From assembly GCF_003052295.1 (NCBI RefSeq), contig NZ_QBLC01000003.1, positions 248,001 through 312,000 of the forward strand: a stretch of DNA of 64,000 bases, written 5' to 3'. The position numbers and the translations under genes were made by a program. The DNA comes from Trichococcus paludicola. GTDB lineage: Bacteria > Bacillota > Bacilli > Lactobacillales > Aerococcaceae. Shown piece after piece: positions 43,156 to 61,727 of this stretch; the stretch's first letter is position 1; each line of letters opens with the position of its first letter. The notes under the pieces are model-generated. The model was not told where the DNA came from, did not search any database, and saw nothing but the letters and a program-made list of their open reading frames with translations.

Positions 43156-43186
43156 GTAAGTGTATACAGGAAAGGAGGTGTTTCAA

Positions 43187-44170
43187 TTGGGAACAATGAA
43201 AGATGTAGCTGCTCTAGCGAAGGTTGGCGTCGGTACCGTATCGCGTGTGCTGAACAATTCTGGAGCTGTAAAAGAATCGACCCGCAGAAAAGTGGAAGCG
43301 GCGATGAAAGAGTTGAATTATATTCCTAATGCCTATGCACGCGGCCTGAAGATGAACAAGACGCACACGATCGCATTGATCATTCCGACAATCTGGCATC
43401 CGTTTTTTGCCGAATTTGCCTATTATGTGGAGCGGAATTTGTCTGAACATAAGTACAAGATGCTGTTGTGCAACTCTGATGTCAGCAATGACAAGGAACT
43501 GGAATATATTCAGATGGTTCAAGAAAATAAAGTGGACGGCATCATCGGCATCACCTATTCGGATTTGGATAATTTTGTCTCGTCGCATTTGCCTTTCGTC
43601 ACCATTGACCGTCATTTCAAGGAAGAAACGGTCTGTGTCACTTCGGACAACTTTCATGCAGGCCAGTTGGCTGTAGCAAAGTTGGTTGAGAAGGGTTGTA
43701 AAAAACTCGGGTATATCGGAACCCATTCACGCTTTCCGAGCGAGACGACAAAGAGAAGAGAAGGCTTTGTAGCGCAAGCTGAGCTTATGGAAATTCCTTA
43801 TGCCATCTACGATGGGGAAGACCCAGTTATGGAATTCAAGCAGGAGATACGAACCTTTCTCGAAGAAAATCCGGATGTGGATGGCGTATTTGCCCACACA
43901 GATTTTATTGCTTTGGATATTCTGGAAGTTTTGGAAGAAATGAATCGCAAAGTGCCGGAGGAAGTGCAGATTATCGGATGCGATGGCATCAAGATGGAAG
44001 CCGGTCGCAGACAGATCGTATCGACAATCCGTCAGCCCGTTGACTTGATGGCCAAAGCCGCAGTCGAAAAAATCATCCAAGTGATCGATGGCGAACCCGT
44101 CAAAACGAAGATCACTTTGCCAGTCCATTACGTAGAAGGACCGACAACAAAAAATGAAATTTTAAAATAA
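43187..44170 (+). CDS. LacI family transcriptional regulator
   Basis: A sugar-responsive regulator (327 residues) with an N-terminal HTH (TMKDVAALAKVGVGTVSRVLNNS) and hinge (YARGLKMNKTHTIALIIP), followed by a periplasmic-binding-like effector domain (TIWHPFFAEFAYYVE; DGVFAHTDFIALDILEVL; IIGCDGIKMEA). The start is TTG 43187, 8 bp after AAAGGAGG; ATG 43196 is too far. It most likely represses the adjacent ABC-GH32-fructokinase operon through the palindromic sites at 44251, 44381 and 44435. The effector is probably a fructose-containing sugar or a phosphate of one, by context. Confidence 0.9.
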   Translation: MGTMKDVAALAKVGVGTVSRVLNNSGAVKESTRRKVEAAMKELNYIPNAYARGLKMNKTHTIALIIPTIWHPFFAEFAYYVERNLSEHKYKMLLCNSDVSNDKELEYIQMVQENKVDGIIGITYSDLDNFVSSHLPFVTIDRHFKEETVCVTSDNFHAGQLAVAKLVEKGCKKLGYIGTHSRFPSETTKRREGFVAQAELMEIPYAIYDGEDPVMEFKQEIRTFLEENPDVDGVFAHTDFIALDILEVLEEMNRKVPEEVQIIGCDGIKMEAGRRQIVSTIRQPVDLMAKAAVEKIIQVIDGEPVKTKITLPVHYVEGPTTKNEILK

Positions 44171-44212: not shown

Positions 44213-44230
44213 ATGTTTAAAGCAAAAACA

Positions 44231-44448
44231 TATTTTTTTGAAGCAAAGTGGAAACGTTTCAATTACCCATTAAACGTTTCCCTATTTTTGAAATCGCGGG
44301 CAGGCTGATGATTGATCAACCGCACCGATTTCAAAAGTAGCATGCCGATTCTTCAAAATTTATTTTTTTGAACTAAAGTGGAAACGTTTCAATTATCGAG
44401 CATGAATCTTTCCACATTTTTTTGAAGCAAAGTGGAAACGTTTCAATT
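44231..44448 (+). repeat. three copies of a promoter/operator-like repeat in the leader of the saccharide operon
   Basis: Copies at 44231-44265, 44361-44395 and 44416-44448 share a T-run, TTGAA, AAAGTGGAAACG and TTTCAATT. Each contains the palindrome GAAACGTTTC (44251-44260, 44381-44390, 44435-44444), as expected for a LacI-family operator. A related TAAACGTTTC lies at 44271-44280. All lie downstream of the strong promoter at 44184. Copy 2 itself resembles a promoter (TTGAAC, 17 bp, AATTAT). Between copies 1 and 2 an 11-bp inverted repeat (44286-44296 with 44326-44336) can form a hairpin. Confidence 0.85.
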
Positions 44449-44473
44449 TCCAAAAGGAGGAGTTAGATCAGTC

Positions 44474-45415
44474 ATGAAAAAAAGCCAGACAAGCATCAAA
44501 CCAAAGGGCACACAAACAAAATGGGAATTCATCAAACAGCACCGAATGCTCTACTATATGCTGTTGCCGGGACTGTTACTCACACTGGTATTTAAATATT
44601 TCCCGATGTACGGCATTCTCTTGGCTTTCAAGGATTACAACCCGCTGCGTGGGATCATGGGAAGCGAATGGGTGGGAGTGGAAAACTTCGTACAGTTCAT
44701 CGACTCACCGAACTTCTCAGTGTTATTGGAGAATACGCTCAAAATAAGTATTTACGGACTGGTCTTGGGGTTCTTCCCGCCGATCCTCTTGGCATTATCC
44801 TTGAATCATCTGATCAGCACAAAATGGAAGAAGCGATTCCAACTGATTCTGTATGCACCGAACTTTATTTCCTTGGTGATTGTTGTGGGGATGCTGTTCA
44901 TGTTCCTGGCCGCAGATGGCCCCATCAACGGATTTATTGAAACCATCACCGGTTCGCGGATCACGTTCATGACCGACCCGAATTATTTCCGGACTTTGTA
45001 CATCCTATCCGGCATTTGGCAAGGAATGGGCTGGGCATCGGTCCTCTACACAGCCACACTGGCAAACGTCAGCCAAGATCTGATCGATGCAGCTCACATG
45101 GACGGCGCCAATATCTTGTACCGGATCTGGTACATCGATCTTCCGGCGCTACGCCCGATCATGGTCATCCAGTTCATCCTTTCTGTCGGGGGGATCATGA
45201 ACGTTGGTTATGAGAAAGCTTTCCTGATGCAAACATCTATGAACCTACCTGTTTCGGAGATCATCTCGACCTACGTCTACAAAGTCGGGTTGCAAATGGG
45301 GGATTACGGATATTCAACGGCAGTCGGGTTATTCAATACAGTCATCAATGTCATCTTGCTGTTGGCCGTAAACATGATAGCGAACAAAGTAAACAATGAT
45401 GACGCGGCTTTATAG
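44474..45415 (+). CDS. carbohydrate ABC transporter permease, LplB type
   Basis: An inner-membrane permease of a binding-protein-dependent sugar importer (313 residues, about six helices). The N-terminus (YYMLLPGLLLTLVFKYFPMYGILLAFKDY) is typical of the LplB/UgpA type. The EAA loop is DLIDAAHMDGANILYRIWYIDLP. ATG 44474 follows AAGGAGG. An upstream in-frame ATG (44432) lies within the third operator and is rejected. It pairs with the next permease and the lipoprotein at 46359. Confidence 0.9.
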   Translation: MKKSQTSIKPKGTQTKWEFIKQHRMLYYMLLPGLLLTLVFKYFPMYGILLAFKDYNPLRGIMGSEWVGVENFVQFIDSPNFSVLLENTLKISIYGLVLGFFPPILLALSLNHLISTKWKKRFQLILYAPNFISLVIVVGMLFMFLAADGPINGFIETITGSRITFMTDPNYFRTLYILSGIWQGMGWASVLYTATLANVSQDLIDAAHMDGANILYRIWYIDLPALRPIMVIQFILSVGGIMNVGYEKAFLMQTSMNLPVSEIISTYVYKVGLQMGDYGYSTAVGLFNTVINVILLLAVNMIANKVNNDDAAL

Positions 45416-55250: not shown

Positions 55251-55271
55251 ATCATAAGTTAAACCTATGAT
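55251..55271 (+). promoter_or_regulatory. LysR-type binding site of the prpF-like operon
   Basis: ATCATAAGTT, 5 bp, TATGAT: an inverted repeat (ATCATA with TATGAT) whose first ten and last six bases recur exactly at 58918-58938. Its centre is about 65 bp upstream of the inferred transcription start (near 55326), the classic position for LysR-type activation. Confidence 0.75.
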
Positions 55272-55289
55272 TTAGATAAAAATGATTGA

Positions 55290-55319
55290 TTGGATATTTG
55301 GTTAACCAGAATTTATACT
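55290..55319 (+). promoter_or_regulatory. sigma-A promoter of the prpF-like operon
   Basis: TTGGAT (55290-55295), 18 bp, TATACT (55314-55319). The palindrome TGGTTAACCA (55299-55308) lies in the spacer. The leader is then about 120 nt long. The stretch 55151-55250 is A+T-rich and I see nothing else in it. Confidence 0.55.
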
Positions 55320-55448
55320 TCAGATATCAAGTTGAGTAATGAGCAATCAATAGAACTGCAGTCTATATGAACTTGTTACTAAAAAGGATTCAACTGGATA
55401 ACCACAAATCCATGGATAATTGAAAACGCAAACATTTGGAGGGACGAT

Positions 55449-56585
55449 ATGTTAAGAGAGCTACAATGCAGCATCTTTCGAGGCGGCACAAGCAAAGGTG
55501 CATTCGTAATGGAAGAAGATTTACCGGAAAACAAAGAGGAACGTGATCAGATCCTGTTAAAAATCATGGGCAGCCCTGATCAACGCCAAATTGATGGTTT
55601 GGGTGGGGCAGTCTCCACGACCAGTAAAGTCGCCATCATTTCAAAAGAGACTGCAGAAGATTGGGACATCAACTATACATTTGCGCAGGTTCAGATCGAT
55701 AAACCTTTTGTCTCCTATGCAGGGAACTGCGGGAACATTTCATCTGCTGTAGGAGTCTTCGCACTTGAAAATAATCTGGTGGATATTACCTCCCCAATCA
55801 CGACTGTCAGGGTATATAATACAAACACAAAGAAAATCATTCACGAGCATATCCCTACTCCTAACGGAGAGATCACCTATGAAGGCGACTTCAGTATCTC
55901 AGGTGTTCCCGGAACTGGCTCGAAGATCGAACTGGAATTTTTGAATCCGGAAGGTTCCTTCACCGGCAAATTGTTGCCGACAGGGCAAACCAAAGACGTG
56001 CTTGAAATCGAAGATTACGGAGATGTCGAAGTATCGATCGTCGATGCGGCAAACCCGTTGGTGTATGTGAGAGCGGGAGATATCGGCTTTATCGGATCCG
56101 AAACGGCAGCCGTGATCGATGCTGATCCAGCGAATCTTGAACTGTTGGAAAAAATCAGGGGAGAAGCAGCCGTCAAAATGGGCTTGGCTGATAAATGGGA
56201 AGAAGCCGCTACGGTGACGCCGGGAGTGCCCAAAATGACGATCGTGTCAGCAGCGCAGGATTTCATTACCGACAGCGGGAAAGAAATAAAGGCATCCGAA
56301 TATGACCTTTCTATCCGGATGATGAGCATGCAGAAAGCCCACAAAACCATCGCTTTGACGGGTGCTTTGTGCACAGCCGCAGCCTGCGCAATCCCGGGTA
56401 CCATCCCGAATGAAGTGTTGGGGAACGAAAATGTGAAAAATGAGCTCGTGCTTGGGCACAGCGACGGCCTCATTTCCGTAGCCATGAAGTACAAGAACGA
56501 AGATGGAAAAATCAAAATTGAATCCGTATCGAGCCACAGGACCGCGAGAAAAATCATGGTCGGTAAAGTCTACTATCAAGGATAG
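55449..56585 (+). CDS. PrpF family aconitate/methylaconitate isomerase-like protein
   Basis: A PrpF family protein (378 residues, two-domain diaminopimelate-epimerase-like fold). PrpF members move the double bond or change cis/trans geometry in tricarboxylates such as 2-methylaconitate and aconitate. Signatures: FRGGTSKGAFV (residues 10-20), LGGAVSTTSKVAI with Lys60 at the place of the reported catalytic lysine (from memory), and SYAGNCGNISSAVG with Cys94. Methylcitrate-cycle partners prpB and prpC are absent. Its neighbours are a citrate-type transporter and aconitase, so aconitate isomerase is the most likely activity. AGGGACG precedes the ATG. Confidence 0.85.
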   Translation: MLRELQCSIFRGGTSKGAFVMEEDLPENKEERDQILLKIMGSPDQRQIDGLGGAVSTTSKVAIISKETAEDWDINYTFAQVQIDKPFVSYAGNCGNISSAVGVFALENNLVDITSPITTVRVYNTNTKKIIHEHIPTPNGEITYEGDFSISGVPGTGSKIELEFLNPEGSFTGKLLPTGQTKDVLEIEDYGDVEVSIVDAANPLVYVRAGDIGFIGSETAAVIDADPANLELLEKIRGEAAVKMGLADKWEEAATVTPGVPKMTIVSAAQDFITDSGKEIKASEYDLSIRMMSMQKAHKTIALTGALCTAAACAIPGTIPNEVLGNENVKNELVLGHSDGLISVAMKYKNEDGKIKIESVSSHRTARKIMVGKVYYQG

Positions 56586-56614
56586 AAATAACACAAAGAA
56601 TAGGAAGTGTTGAA

Positions 56615-57991
56615 ATGTTAGCATTGTTAGGCTATGGAATGATCATTACCTTCATGGTTTTGTTATTAACCAAGAAAATGTCACCTTTTGCAGCATTAAT
56701 TTTAGTTCCCGTCGTTTTTGGTTTAGCTGCAGCATTTATAAGTGGAACACCACTTTTGGAAGTATTTGATTGGATTTTTGGAGGGTTGTATTACTCACTT
56801 GATGGGGATGGGAAACTTATCGGTAAAGGTGTAGCCCCAACGATTACCTTATTGCTGTTCGCCATTCTTTACTTCTCGGTTATGTTGGACGTAGGTCTAT
56901 TCGACCCATTGGCTACGAAGATGATCAAATGGGCAAAAGGCGATCCAATGAAGATTTGTGTCGCTACTGGTGTTATCTCTTTAATCGTGTCACTGGATGG
57001 TGACGGGACAACAACTGTGCTGATCGTAACGACAGCGGTTCTGACGCTTTTCAAGAAGATGAGGATGAACCAGCTTTACTTGGCGGTAATCATCGGATTC
57101 TGCAACTCGGTAATGAACTTAGTCCCTTGGAGTGGACCGATGGCGCGTGCGATGCCGGTGCTGAACTTGACACCGAAAGAATTCTTCGTACCCGTTATCC
57201 CAGGTATGATCGGTGCAACATTCCTGGCATTGTATATGTGCTACTACTATGGTAAAAAAGAGCGCGCTCGTCTGGGCTATGAAAAAGGCAGCGGCATCAT
57301 CCATGACAGCGACTTGGAACACATCATTAAAGAAATCAACGAAAAAGATGCGTATTTGAAACGCCCTAAATTGATTTGGTTCAACTTTTTGCTTACCGCG
57401 GCAATCATGACAATGTTGATCATGGACATCATCAATGGCGGTATCCTCTTCGTGCTTGGTACAGCTATCGCGTTGCTGGTCAACTACAGACAGTTGAATC
57501 TGCAGTCTTCCCGTCTGATCGCAAATGGTGGAGAAGCATTAGGACCAGTGAGCTTAGTTTATGGTGCTGGTATCATCATGGGTGTCCTGAACGGCAGCGG
57601 CATGAGTGCAGCCATCGCACAACAAATGGCTGGCATGATTCCGGAAAACATGGGTGCCTACATTCCATTCTTCCTGGCTTTGATTTCTTTACCAGGGTTG
57701 TTCTTCTTGCCAAATGACGCTTTCTACTTTGGGATCCTGCCGGTATTGGCACCAATTGCTTATCAATACGGTGCAACACCGACTGAAATCGGTGTCGCTT
57801 CCATGATGGGTCAAGCCATCCGCTTTGCAAGTCCATTAGTGGCATTTCTTTATGTTTTGGTTGACAGAACAGAGGTCAGCTTTGGTGATTACTCAAAAGA
57901 ATACCTGAAATGGGGTCTTCCAAGCTTTGTGATCCAAACGGTTATCGCCATTCTGATCGGTGCGATTCCGCTGCCTTTCTTGTTCAATTAA
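56615..57991 (+). CDS. CitMHS family citrate/tricarboxylate transporter
   Basis: A membrane transporter of the CitMHS family (458 residues, about 12 helices), which moves citrate, often complexed with a divalent metal, in symport with protons. Typical segments: SLDGDGTTTVLIVTTAVLTL, GFCNSVMNLVPWSGPMARAM, FLPNDAFYFGILPVLAPIA and GQAIRFASPLVAFLYVLVD. It lies 29 bp after the PrpF-like gene, in one operon. With an isomerase and aconitase, the substrate could be trans-aconitate, citrate or a related acid. It ends 3 bp from the convergent lysR stop, and no terminator is visible between them. Confidence 0.92.
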   Translation: MLALLGYGMIITFMVLLLTKKMSPFAALILVPVVFGLAAAFISGTPLLEVFDWIFGGLYYSLDGDGKLIGKGVAPTITLLLFAILYFSVMLDVGLFDPLATKMIKWAKGDPMKICVATGVISLIVSLDGDGTTTVLIVTTAVLTLFKKMRMNQLYLAVIIGFCNSVMNLVPWSGPMARAMPVLNLTPKEFFVPVIPGMIGATFLALYMCYYYGKKERARLGYEKGSGIIHDSDLEHIIKEINEKDAYLKRPKLIWFNFLLTAAIMTMLIMDIINGGILFVLGTAIALLVNYRQLNLQSSRLIANGGEALGPVSLVYGAGIIMGVLNGSGMSAAIAQQMAGMIPENMGAYIPFFLALISLPGLFFLPNDAFYFGILPVLAPIAYQYGATPTEIGVASMMGQAIRFASPLVAFLYVLVDRTEVSFGDYSKEYLKWGLPSFVIQTVIAILIGAIPLPFLFN

Positions 57992-57994
57992 GCA

Positions 57995-58903
57995 TCAAAC
58001 GACTTCTCGGCAAAGGTCAATCAAGGTTCTGATGTAAGGAGGCAGTTTTCGCCCTTTTCGGTAAGCCACAATCATATCGGCATAATGTGGCTTACCCTCG
58101 AAAGAGAAGAAGCGCGGAGCATTGCCGAATTTCAAGTGACGGATATGGGTTTCATTCAAAAAAGAGATGCCATATCCCGTCATCGTCAGATTGACGGCTG
58201 TCTCGATATTCCGTGTATGCGTCACTTTATTGGGGACGAAATGATGTTCCGCAAAAATCGCTTCGGCGATCTGGCCGGTACGCTGATCGGGGAAATGCAG
58301 AATGAACCGATCCTTTTTGAACAAATGCAGATCAATGGAAGGGTAGCTGCTGTTCGGATTAGGCTTCCCTTGGTCGATGCAAGGATGCCCTGACGGCACA
58401 GCCAACAGGATCTCTTCCGACTTGATGATTTCGTAGTCCAGATTTAAAGCGTGATGCGGCATGTTCATGATTGCGATATCCGCTTCTCCGTTGTTGATTT
58501 TTTCTTCTACAACTTTGGAAGACTCTTCAAGCAACTCGACTTCGATATTCGGGTAGATTTCATTGAATTTCGGCAAGATATCAGGAGCCAGATAAGAACC
58601 CCGCATAAAGGGAATGGAAACGCGCAGACGGCCGATTTTGTTGTCCAGTATGTGGGAAGCTTCATCGTAAAAATTTTCGCGCATGCGCAGAATCTCGATT
58701 CCGGCAGCTAAAAAACGTTCACCAAGGAAAGTCAGTTCATATTTCTTTCCGATTTGATTGAAGACTGGGAATCCCAAGCGGGCCTGCATATTTTTGATGT
58801 ACATGCTCAATGAGGGTTGTGAGATGTATAGAGACTCAGCTGCCCTTGTCAAACTGCCGCAGTCGTTGATCGCCTTCACGTATTCGATATCTTTCATTTC
58901 CAT
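57995..58903 (-). CDS. LysR family transcriptional regulator
   Basis: A LysR-type regulator (302 residues) with an N-terminal winged HTH (DIEYVKAINDCGSLTRAAES, LYISQPSLSMYIKNMQARLG) and an effector domain (YPNIEVELLEES; TGYGISFLNETHIRHL). It lies between the isomerase-transporter operon and divergent acnA. The same 21-bp site occurs at 55251 and 58918, so it likely regulates both units and, because the second site touches its own leader, itself. ATG 58903 follows AAGGGGA. The inducer is probably a tricarboxylate. Confidence 0.92.
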   Translation of the reverse strand: MEMKDIEYVKAINDCGSLTRAAESLYISQPSLSMYIKNMQARLGFPVFNQIGKKYELTFLGERFLAAGIEILRMRENFYDEASHILDNKIGRLRVSIPFMRGSYLAPDILPKFNEIYPNIEVELLEESSKVVEEKINNGEADIAIMNMPHHALNLDYEIIKSEEILLAVPSGHPCIDQGKPNPNSSYPSIDLHLFKKDRFILHFPDQRTGQIAEAIFAEHHFVPNKVTHTRNIETAVNLTMTGYGISFLNETHIRHLKFGNAPRFFSFEGKPHYADMIVAYRKGRKLPPYIRTLIDLCREVV

Positions 58904-58917
58904 AGAATCATCCCCTT

Positions 58918-58938
58918 ATCATAAGTTTTGATTATGAT
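58918..58938. promoter_or_regulatory. LysR-type binding site between lysR and acnA
   Basis: ATCATAAGTT, 5 bp, TATGAT, matching 55251-55271 in both arms. Its centre is about 65 bp upstream of the inferred acnA start (near 58993) and it adjoins the lysR ribosome site. A second inverted repeat, ACATAAA (58941-58947) with TTTATGT (58962-58968), lies next to it toward acnA and may be the activation half-site. Confidence 0.75.
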
Positions 58939-58957
58939 ATACATAAAAAATATATAT

Positions 58958-58999
58958 TTCATTTATGTTTATTATAGGGATACAATCACACTAAGTAAA
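58958..58999. promoter_or_regulatory. overlapping divergent promoters of acnA and lysR
   Basis: For acnA (plus): TTCATT (58958-58963), 17 bp, TACAAT (58981-58986). For lysR (minus): TTTACT (58994-58999), 17 bp, TATAAT (58971-58976). The two overlap, so activation of acnA should interfere with lysR transcription. Confidence 0.55.
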
Positions 59000-59033
59000 T
59001 ACAAGAATATAGAAATTGGAGAGGTACTATACT

Positions 59034-61727
59034 ATGAACAGCAAGCAGAAATCAATTAAAACCATCAATACAAATGGGAAGGAGTATAAGTACTACGATC
59101 TGAAATCACTGGAAAATGAAAAAGTGACGATCGCCAAATTGCCATATTCCATCCGTGTTTTGCTGGAAAACTTGTTGCGACAAGAGGACGGCAACGTCAT
59201 CACCGAACAACACGTCCTGTCCTTAGCCAACTGGAAACCTGTAAACGAAGTGAAAACAGAGATCCCATTCAAACCATCCCGTGTCATTCTGCAGGATTTG
59301 ACAGGCGGAGCGGCGATCGTGGACTTGGCAGCATTGCGTTATGTGACCGATAAATTGGGTAAAGATTCCGCAATCATCAATCCGGACATACCGGTGGATT
59401 TGGTCATTGACCATTCCGTTCAAGTCGACTACTCAGGATTCAATGATGCTTTCAGAATGAACGCGGAAATTGAGTTCGATCGGAATCGTGAGCGTTACGA
59501 ATTCTTCAGTTGGGCGGAAAAATCGTTTGATTCCTTCAGTGTGGTGCCGCCAGCGACAGGGATTGTCCATCAGGTGAACTTGGAATACCTGGCGGATGTC
59601 GTGAAGGAAGCCGAAGCCGATGGGGAAACCATCCTCTACCCGGATACTTTGGTCGGAACCGATTCGCACACCACGATGATCAACGCTTTGGGTGTCCTTG
59701 GTTGGGGCGTCGGCGGCATCGAAGCCGAGGCAGGCATGTTGGGGCAACCGTGCTACCTGCAACTGCCGGATGTCGTGGGAGTTCGCTTCACAGGCAAACT
59801 CCAAAACGGGGCAACGGCAACTGACTTGGCTTTAAAAATGACCCAAGTACTGCGTGAACGGAAGGTAGTCGGAAAGTTTGTCGAATATTTCGGTGAAGGT
59901 TTGAAAAACCTGACGATCGCCGACAGATCGGTCATTGCCAATATGGCACCGGAATACGGTGCGACCTGCGGCTTCTTCCCGGTCGATGACGAAACATTGG
60001 GCTATCTGCGCTTCACCGGCAGAGAAGATGCGAAAGTGGACAGGATCGAAACCTATGTCAAAGCGAACAACCTGTTCTACAATGATGCAATCGAACCAGA
60101 GTATTCAGAGCTGATCGAAATCGAACTTTCAATAGTGGAACCAAGCTTGGCAGGTCCGAAAAGACCGCAGGACTTAGTGAAGCTATCCGATGTCAGCAAA
60201 GAATTTAAAGAGGCATATGCCGCACCGATGGGGAATCAAGGCTTTGGGTTGGAGGCAGCCGATATCGACAATAAAGTGACGATCACCTATGAAGACGGCT
60301 ATCAAGAAGAGATGGAAAATGGAGCGGTATCCATCGCAGCCATCACCAGCTGCACGAATACAAGCAACCCGTACCTGATGCTCAGCGCCGCTTTATTGGC
60401 CAAAAATGCAGTCGAAAAAGGATTGACCGTCAAACGCTATGTCAAAACATCCATGTCGCCGGGGTCGAAAGTGACGGCGCGCTATTATGAAAAATCGGGC
60501 TTATTGCCTTACCTGGAAGCATTGGGCTTCAACATCATCGGCTACGGCTGCATGACGTGCGTGGGCAACTCCGGACCGCTGAGACCGGAAGTCAGCGAAG
60601 CGGCCAAAGAGGGCAACATCCTGCTTTCGGCTGTATTGAGCGGTAACCGCAACTTCGAAGGACGCATCCATGCGGAAGTGAAAGCTGGCTACCTGGCAGC
60701 GCCGCACTTGGTCATCGCCTATGCTTTAGCAGGAAATGTCAAAGTGAATCTGGCCACTGACCCGATCGGTACAGACAAAGAAGGCCAGCCTGTCTATTTC
60801 AAGGACATTTTACCGAGCAACGAAGAAGTCCAAAAAGTTGTGAATGAATCGGTTCTGGCGGATATGTTCAAAGAAGAATATCGTTCCGTATTCGATTCAA
60901 ACGACTTGTGGAACAAAATTGAATCTGCAGATAAACCAGTCTACGATTGGGATGCCGATTCGACCTATATCGCAAATCCGCCATACTTCGAAAACTTCCA
61001 ATTGGAAACAGAGCCGATTACGACTCTGAAAGGATTGCGTGTTTTAGGGAAATTCCAGGATTCGATCACAACCGACCACATTTCACCGGTTGGAGCCATC
61101 GCAATGAAGTCTCCGGCTGGAAAATATCTGATGGAGCATGGCGTGAAACCGAAGGACTTCAATTCGTATGGCAGCCGCAGAGGACACCATGAAGTGATGG
61201 TGCGCGGTACCTTCTCGAATATTCGCCTGAGAAACGCTTTGGCTGACGGACTGGAGGGTGGATTCACCAAATATATCCCGACCAACGAAATCATGCCGAT
61301 TTTCGATGCCAGCGTGAAATACAAAGAAGATGGCACGGGATTGGTCATCCTGGCCGGCGACGACTATGGGATGGGATCTTCCCGTGACTGGGCGGCAAAA
61401 GGCGCCAGACTGTTGGGCGTCGATGCGGTCATCGCGAAAAGTTTCGAACGGATCCACCGCTCCAACCTGATCATGGTGGGTGCGCTCCCGCTGGAATTCC
61501 TGAAAGGTGAAGATGCGGAAACGTTAGGATTGACTGGATTGGAAGAGTACGCGATCGCGATCACGGATGAGGTAAAACCGAATGAAGTGATCACTGTGAC
61601 AGCACAAGCTGCGGATGGAACGGAAAAAACATTCCAAGCTATCGCAAGACTGGATTCTGAGATCGAGATCGACTACTACCGCAACAAAGGGATTTTGCCG
61701 ATGGTGCTCAGAAACAAGATCAAATAG
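59034..61727 (+). CDS. acnA: aconitate hydratase (AcnA type)
   Basis: Aconitase of the cytosolic AcnA/IRP type (897 residues), interconverting citrate, cis-aconitate and isocitrate through a 4Fe-4S cluster. Cluster ligands are Cys440 (SCTNTSNP), Cys506 and Cys509 ([10 protein letters not shown]). Other motifs: [37 protein letters not shown] and the swivel-domain [19 protein letters not shown] 59034 has GGAGAGG 9 bp upstream; ATG 59016 lies before it. AcnA length and N-terminus argue against the methylcitrate enzyme AcnD. No citrate synthase or isocitrate dehydrogenase gene is in the window. Confidence 0.95.

What the first reader, a model, noticed from the sequence alone, without database searches (positions are those of the whole stretch)
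55251..61727. LysR-controlled tricarboxylate regulon: PrpF-like isomerase, CitMHS transporter and aconitase sharing one operator
The same inverted repeat (ATCATAAGTT, 5 bp, TATGAT) occurs exactly twice in this locus, at 55251 and 58918. In both cases its centre is about 65 bp upstream of the inferred transcription start, the usual LysR activation position; the second copy also abuts lysR itself. This ties a PrpF-like protein, a citrate-family transporter and AcnA into one regulon. PrpF proteins are known to act on trans-aconitate, and prpB, prpC and isocitrate dehydrogenase are absent. The simplest reading is uptake of trans-aconitate (a plant acid), isomerisation to cis-aconitate and hydration to citrate/isocitrate. 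Alternatively the flow runs outward, making and exporting trans-aconitate as in the tbrAB-type system reported in Bacillus thuringiensis (from memory).
Basis: partly seen in the sequence, partly recalled or inferred. Interest (0 to 1): 0.78.

Follow-up and report, generated by a model that had tools for sequence, protein, structure and literature searches.

The report
Trans-aconitate uptake locus with own aconitase
Four neighbouring genes in a fermenting bacterium most likely import the plant acid trans-aconitate, turn it into cis-aconitate and feed it into central metabolism with a spare, slightly unusual aconitase kept for this job; the pathway is known in outline, the dedicated aconitase is the new part.

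Summary
ATCATAAGTT-N5-TATGAT occurs exactly twice in the held own genome (a Trichococcus, 1.94 Mb, 63% complete): before prpF and before acnA/lysR. Across 9 Trichococcus genomes the prpF copy is strongly conserved (18/21 columns), the acnA copy only loosely (11/21).

The order prpF-citMHS-lysR-acnA recurs in 9 of 13 Trichococcus genomes and four loci outside the genus. This acnA is not the TCA aconitase: all 13 genomes have another beside citrate synthase. The cassette acnA occurs in exactly the 9 genomes with prpF, groups with Enterococcus cassette enzymes and has fixed changes in otherwise invariant motifs. Related loci carry other hydratases instead (PrpD family, NF008503), in Oribacterium beside citrate lyase.

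Best reading: LysR-controlled trans-aconitate assimilation. It works like published TarRAB, but with a CitMHS transporter, another LysR clade and its own aconitase. The methylcitrate cycle is disfavoured (no prpB, no second citrate synthase); export as in tbrAB is less likely, not excluded. Substrate, transport direction and LysR binding are inferred. New variant of a known kind.

The parts
55251..55271 (+). Operator 1, ATCATAAGTT-N5-TATGAT, centre about -65 of the inferred prpF start
   Evidence: 18 of 21 columns invariant in 9 Trichococcus genomes; binding not shown
55290..55319 (+). Inferred prpF promoter (TTGGAT/TGGATA and TATACT)
   Evidence: 9 of 12 consensus; not above chance as a scan hit
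55420..55434 (+). cre-like site (CcpA), starting 29 bases before the prpF ATG and running up to its ribosome site
   Evidence: Matches a recalled consensus; present in 9 of 9 Trichococcus promoters; the pattern is somewhat frequent in the window (6 against a mean of 1.97, 4 of 100 shuffles reach 6)
55449..56585 (+). PrpF-family isomerase, probable aconitate isomerase
   Evidence: PF04303 440.6 bits; below both NCBIfam equivalog cut-offs, as is B. siamensis TarA; Lys60 and Cys94 match PrpF K73 and C107
56615..57991 (+). CitMHS-family transporter
   Evidence: TIGR00784 395.2 bits, cut-off 259.7; substrate and direction inferred
57995..58903 (-). LysR-family regulator
   Evidence: PF00126 and PF03466; clade with the LysR of the Enterococcus and Streptococcus loci
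58918..58938 (+). Operator 2, contains ATAA-N7-TTAT; 14 bp before the lysR ATG, centre about -65 of the inferred acnA start
   Evidence: 11 of 21 columns invariant in 9 genomes; binding not shown
58971..58999 (-). Inferred lysR promoter (TTTACT, 17, TATAAT); operator 2 would then lie downstream of the lysR start
   Evidence: 10 of 12; hexamers kept in 9 of 9 genomes
59034..61727 (+). Second aconitase, AcnA2
   Evidence: TIGR01341 1344.7 bits, cut-off 945; present in the 9 of 13 Trichococcus genomes that have prpF; 13 clade-specific positions

Best explanation
A trans-aconitate assimilation regulon. The CitMHS protein imports trans-aconitate (inferred). The PrpF-family protein isomerises it to cis-aconitate (inferred from homology). 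A dedicated second aconitase, AcnA2, hydrates cis-aconitate to citrate and isocitrate (family shown, substrate inferred). Citrate can then go to citrate lyase and isocitrate to isocitrate dehydrogenase, both encoded in the genome. The LysR protein, presumably with a tricarboxylate as co-inducer, binds palindromes near -65 of both promoters and activates them, and may repress its own gene from the second site (site conservation shown, binding inferred). A cre-like site before prpF suggests repression by CcpA when sugar is present (inferred).
For: Same gene order in 9 of 13 Trichococcus genomes, two Enterococcus records and two more genomes of the order. Two conserved sites. The PrpF-like protein is 46% identical to TarA of B. 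siamensis, whose locus has the published geometry of the B. velezensis tar genes (173 bp and 43 bp gaps, same gene lengths); TarA and TbrA, both proven isomerases, share 33% (PMC11495376, passages). Catalytic Lys and Cys kept. In relatives other hydratases stand in the aconitase slot: PrpD family in Streptococcus, NF008503 type in Clostridium, a MAG and Oribacterium, the last with citD and citF over cut-off. Citrate lyase alpha over cut-off in 13 of 13. No PrpB over cut-off in 13. Acidaminococcus ferments trans-aconitate via citrate (PMC3035267, passages). dN/dS well below 1 for all four genes between the window and G009.
Against: No assay. The nearest solved relative of the PrpF-like protein is 3-methylitaconate isomerase (310.8 bits, against 260.5 for PrpF). 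AcnA2 differs at motifs near the active site, which could mean another substrate. The acnA operator is only loosely conserved and neither operator is kept outside the genus. Two genomes of the same family have a 47% LysR relative with none of the other three genes in the 12 kb fetched. CitMHS proteins are named for citrate, not aconitate.
Confidence: 0.7

Rival explanations
1. Outward flow, as reported for tbrAB of B. thuringiensis: AcnA2 makes cis-aconitate from citrate, the PrpF-like protein converts it to trans-aconitate and the transporter exports it.
For: The isomerase works both ways, with a preference for trans-aconitate in vitro (PMC11495376, passages); an extra aconitase would also supply cis-aconitate. 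Direction is said to be set mainly by the transporter (same paper).
Against: CitMHS is a family of citrate:proton symporters, that is importers (family name; general knowledge). Related loci contain citrate lyase or oxaloacetate decarboxylase genes, which are catabolic. A cre-like site before prpF fits a catabolic operon.
Confidence: 0.13
2. A fragment of the 2-methylcitrate cycle (AcnD/PrpF type) acting on methylaconitate.
For: PrpF and aconitase-family proteins occur together in that cycle (PMC5690661, passages); the Streptococcus loci carry a PrpD-family gene.
Against: No PrpB over cut-off in 13 genomes (the own genome is 63% complete); one citrate synthase gene per genome, beside the other acnA. 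AcnA2 scores 787 bits against the AcnD cut-off of 1419.85 and is over the AcnA cut-off. Both PrpF and oxalomesaconate equivalog cut-offs are missed.
Confidence: 0.06
3. The LysR is a CcpC-type citrate regulator and the locus is mainly a citrate-responsive aconitase and citrate-uptake unit.
For: Site 2 contains ATAA-N7-TTAT and its centre is near -65; the citB dyad of B. subtilis is centred at -66 with boxes ATAA and TTAT (PMC8514465, passages; the N7 spacing is recalled).
Against: 62.5 bits against the CcpC cut-off of 400. B. siamensis CcpC (L248) groups with TarR, away from this clade (long branches flagged). The other acnA of the own genome has no such site within 3 mismatches nearby. It leaves the PrpF gene unexplained.
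Confidence: 0.1

Closest known systems
TarRAB trans-aconitate assimilation system of Bacillus velezensis FZB42 (PMC11495376; abstract, sections 26 and 27 and passages seen)
   Same: PrpF-family isomerase (46% identical to B. siamensis TarA), transporter gene just downstream, LysR regulator nearby with sites upstream of the isomerase gene.
   Different: TarB is an MFS protein (PF07690, TIGR00895 best), here CitMHS. TarR belongs to another LysR clade, with CcpC, and lies divergent to tarA; here lysR is divergent to acnA and convergent with citMHS. Three TTATAA motifs against a T-N11-A palindrome. No aconitase gene is described in tar in the parts read.
tbrAB trans-aconitate production operon of B. 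thuringiensis (seen only as described in PMC11495376 and PMC13188880, passages)
   Same: PrpF-family isomerase with a transporter gene.
   Different: Runs outward; the original paper was not held, so gene families and regulation could not be compared.
CcpC control of citB in Bacillus (PMC8514465, passages)
   Same: LysR family, ATAA/TTAT dyad near -66 of an aconitase promoter.
   Different: Other LysR clade; here the aconitase is an accessory one and a PrpF-transporter operon is tied in.
Trans-aconitate fermentation via citrate in Acidaminococcus fermentans (PMC3035267, passages)
   Same: Proposed route trans-aconitate, citrate, oxaloacetate, pyruvate.
   Different: Sodium-dependent uptake; its gene organisation was not compared here.
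AcnD/PrpF 2-methylcitrate cycle (PMC5690661, passages)
   Same: PrpF fold family with catalytic Lys and Cys, and an aconitase relative.
   Different: prpB, prpC and AcnD are not found.

Membership tests
TarRAB system | PrpF-family aconitate isomerase | tested here: inconclusive
   Family and catalytic residues met, 46% to TarA; activity not testable
TarRAB system | MFS importer TarB encoded downstream | tested here: not met
   The transporter is CitMHS; TarB of B. siamensis is MFS
TarRAB system | TarR-type LysR, divergent to tarA | tested here: not met
   26% identity over 152 residues, other clade, lysR divergent to acnA
TarRAB system | Trans-aconitate binds the LysR and activates transcription | not testable with these tools
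   Needs binding and expression assays
CcpC regulator | NCBIfam NF058504 cut-off of 400 bits | tested here: not met
   62.5 bits; B. siamensis CcpC 514 bits
2-methylcitrate cycle (AcnD/PrpF) | prpB and prpC in the genome | tested here: not met
   PrpB 0 of 13 over cut-off; one citrate synthase per genome, beside the other acnA
4-oxalomesaconate tautomerase or PrpF equivalogs | NCBIfam equivalog cut-offs (440 and 440.55 bits) | tested here: not met
   363.5 and 312.3 bits; B. siamensis TarA also fails both, 335.4 and 249.8
CitMHS transporters | TIGR00784 cut-off | tested here: met
   395.2 bits against 259.7
AcnA aconitases | TIGR01341 cut-off; cluster and catalytic motifs | tested here: met
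   1344.7 bits against 945; [23 protein letters not shown] kept
tbrAB production operon | Export of trans-aconitate | not testable with these tools
   Direction needs uptake and culture-fluid measurements

The most novel reading that the evidence does not exclude
AcnA2 is a pathway-specific aconitase that tolerates trans-aconitate, which is both the pathway's substrate and a known competitive inhibitor of ordinary aconitase. Its fixed changes in motifs otherwise invariant among the aconitases compared (FTGVP to LTGGA, ASPP to AAPH, ADRAT to ADRSV) would be the basis, and the cassette carries its own resistant copy so that uptake does not stall the citrate branch.
Probability: 0.3. Interest if true: 0.68.

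Novelty: new variant of a known kind. Interest (0 to 1): 0.52.

Why it matters
Trans-aconitate is plentiful in grasses, sugarcane and sorghum and inhibits aconitase (PMC11495376, PMC8871043 abstract, passages). How bacteria live on an inhibitor of their own TCA enzyme is not explained in the parts of the TarRAB paper that I read. A cassette with its own, motif-shifted aconitase, found in two or more families of Lactobacillales and with other hydratases in its place elsewhere, makes that question testable with one enzyme comparison. It also offers a neighbourhood rule for telling aconitate isomerases from methylaconitate and oxalomesaconate isomerases, which the curated models tested here do not separate.

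Tried and rejected
Methylcitrate cycle: disfavoured for lack of prpB and of a second citrate synthase. CcpC orthology: rejected. TarR orthology: rejected. Window acnA as the only aconitase: rejected. A larger regulon: a third ATCATAA-N8-TATGAT palindrome (G000:C2:179415) recurs exactly in at least 7 of 13 genomes (listing truncated), among them G010, which lacks the cassette, so it was not counted as a target. Met507 and Ser475 of AcnA2 as unique: rejected, human cytosolic aconitase has both. Exact operator in Enterococcus and Streptococcus: not found. Rfam over 40-64 kb: no match at gathering score. Plasmids: 10 records, all under 60% identity. Literature: PrpF+aconitase+CitMHS 0 papers; Trichococcus+aconit 1 paper, judged unrelated by its listing; Trichococcus+citrate 29 papers, 15 listed, none opened; some searches gave the tar/tbr, CcpC, PrpF and Acidaminococcus papers. 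Rows left out: the LysR tree used ORFs of 250 aa or more from 36 chosen loci; the aconitase tree used 25 sequences, among them 5 of the 8 other Trichococcus cassette copies and 5 of 13 housekeeping copies; PrpF alignment A1 used 10 of the hits. Structure prediction was not run, since sequence matches to solved relatives were strong.
Full report
WHAT IS THERE. The window lies in a Trichococcus genome (inferred): a same-genus held genome, G011, has a contig of 123,353 bases with the locus, and the record of that length with the locus is titled Trichococcus pasteurii DSM 2381. The four genes are prpF-like (55449-56585 +), citMHS (56615-57991 +), lysR (57995-58903 -) and acnA (ATG 59034, to 61727 +). 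Families: PF04303; TIGR00784 over cut-off; LysR with no cut-off reached among the 25 shown of 46 matched models; TIGR01341 over cut-off.

THE OPERATOR. The two repeats are exact and the only exact pair in the held genome. 0 of 60 shuffles of the window gave a pair of identical perfect-arm sites; at 3 mismatches the excess is modest. Each has a T-N11-A core, the usual LysR form (recalled). In nine aligned Trichococcus promoters the prpF box is 18/21 invariant while about 100 bp further upstream is hardly conserved; the acnA box is 11/21 invariant, and the exact 16-base pattern stands at both promoters in 4 of 9 genomes. That is good evidence for a regulator site before prpF and fair evidence before acnA. 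The inferred lysR promoter would put operator 2 downstream of the lysR start, which suggests autorepression. A cre-like site begins 29 bases before the prpF ATG in 9 of 9 genomes and none stands between lysR and acnA; the pattern is recalled and somewhat frequent in the window (6 against a mean of 1.97).

THE ACONITASE IS A SECOND ONE. All 13 held Trichococcus genomes have an acnA 61-62% identical to the window's, within 100 bases of the single citrate synthase gene; in the own genome an isocitrate dehydrogenase gene follows. The window acnA (92-100% in the genus) occurs in 9 of 13, exactly the 9 with this prpF. Of the four genomes lacking both, three are 99% complete and one is 51%. The cassette acnA forms a clade with that of two Enterococcus records, support 100/100, apart from 16 other Lactobacillales copies and one Chloroflexi sequence. 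At 13 positions all 10 cassette enzymes share a residue that differs from one invariant in 17 others. Human cytosolic aconitase shares two of the 13 with the cassette (Ser475, Met507), differs from both groups at two (46, 162), and has the common residue at nine, which include FTGVP/LTGGA, ADRAT/ADRSV, ASPP/AAPH and SPAG/SPVG (my reading of the alignment). I recall that the FTGVP segment adjoins a substrate-binding glutamine. Cluster and catalytic motifs are kept, and dN/dS between the window and G009 is about 0.03-0.08 for the four genes, so these look like working genes.

RELATED LOCI. By my count, 16 of 80 have a CitMHS relative and 32 of 80 an aconitase-superfamily relative in the fetched flanks (up to 8 kb); many of the latter are weak and may be isopropylmalate-dehydratase-like. 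Two of the 80 (L135, L136) are Trichococcus contigs also held as G012 and G011. Three Streptococcus records have prpF, citMHS and lysR and no acn in the fetched flanks; upstream stands a PrpD/MmgE-family gene, tested by Pfam in L143, matched by ORF in L138 and by sequence in L140. Clostridium sp. 12(A) (L142) and a Bacillota MAG (L137, partial gene) have an NF008503-type hydratase over cut-off. Oribacterium (L146) has one such hydratase over cut-off, a second aconitase relative seen by tblastn only, an isocitrate-dehydrogenase-family gene below cut-offs, LysR, prpF, a CitMHS-family transporter, citD and citF over cut-off and a citE relative below it. Different hydratases of aconitate kind thus fill one slot, which argues that the PrpF product is an aconitate. 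In 395 sampled genomes of the order the LysR (E up to 1e-40) occurs in 13: nine Trichococcus, the two f3 cassette carriers, and two with none of the other three genes in the 12 kb fetched; that is against a strictly dedicated regulator. In the same sample PrpF (E up to 1e-60) occurs in 12 of 395. In 398 sampled genomes of the class, 37 have a PrpF relative, at most 50% identical outside the own genome.

REGULATOR. The LysR belongs with those of the Enterococcus and Streptococcus loci (9 rows, 100/99). B. siamensis TarR groups with B. siamensis CcpC in another clade (12 rows, 100/99); the program flags long branches, so the depth of the split is unsure. TarR itself scores 280 bits on the CcpC model, the window LysR about 60. 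So the regulator is neither TarR nor CcpC by these tests, though site 2 resembles the CcpC dyad of citB in form and place (PMC8514465, passages). The four cassette loci outside Trichococcus keep their own promoter blocks and share with it only an ATCATAA half-site before acnA.

MECHANISM. Shown: gene content, order, co-occurrence, site conservation, the second aconitase, no prpB over cut-off and no second citrate synthase, citrate lyase alpha in 13 of 13. Inferred: substrate, direction, LysR binding, CcpA control. The published TarRAB work shows that such an isomerase with an importer suffices in B. velezensis (PMC11495376; abstract, sections 26 and 27 and passages), and Acidaminococcus ferments trans-aconitate via citrate (PMC3035267, passages). 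I commit to import and assimilation (0.7); export 0.13, a CcpC-like citrate unit 0.1, methylcitrate 0.06.

NOVELTY. It works like TarRAB but fails two of its defining features (importer family, regulator type), so it is not filed as TarRAB. The added, co-regulated, motif-shifted aconitase is the interesting part. No paper holding PrpF, aconitase and CitMHS together was found, and the one with Trichococcus and aconit- looked unrelated by its listing; the library is partial, and the supplementary tables that list tar homologues could not be read.

Noticed in passing
L045 (G008:C58:4500-14449): A second PrpF relative (37%) in one Trichococcus genome, with a CitMHS relative, citG, citX, oxaloacetate decarboxylase alpha and beta genes and a PucR-type regulator: it looks like a separate tricarboxylate fermentation cluster.
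   Followed up: partly
window 44225-44449: Three copies of a 41-base repeat with the core GTGGAAACGTTTCAATT between a LacI-family gene (43160-44170 +) and an ABC permease-like gene (44432-45415 +); probably LacI-type operators (the gene names are my reading).
   Followed up: no
L084 around 2416 (G000:C2:179415): A third ATCATAA-N8-TATGAT palindrome, exact in at least 7 of 13 Trichococcus genomes, also in one without the cassette; its role is unknown.
   Followed up: partly
   Followed up: no
L138, L140, L143: In three Streptococcus species a PrpD/MmgE-family gene precedes prpF-citMHS; whether it is an aconitate hydratase or another enzyme of that family is open.
   Followed up: no
L278, L279 (G573, G481): A 47% relative of the LysR in two genomes of the same family, with none of the other three cassette genes in the 12 kb fetched.
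   Followed up: no
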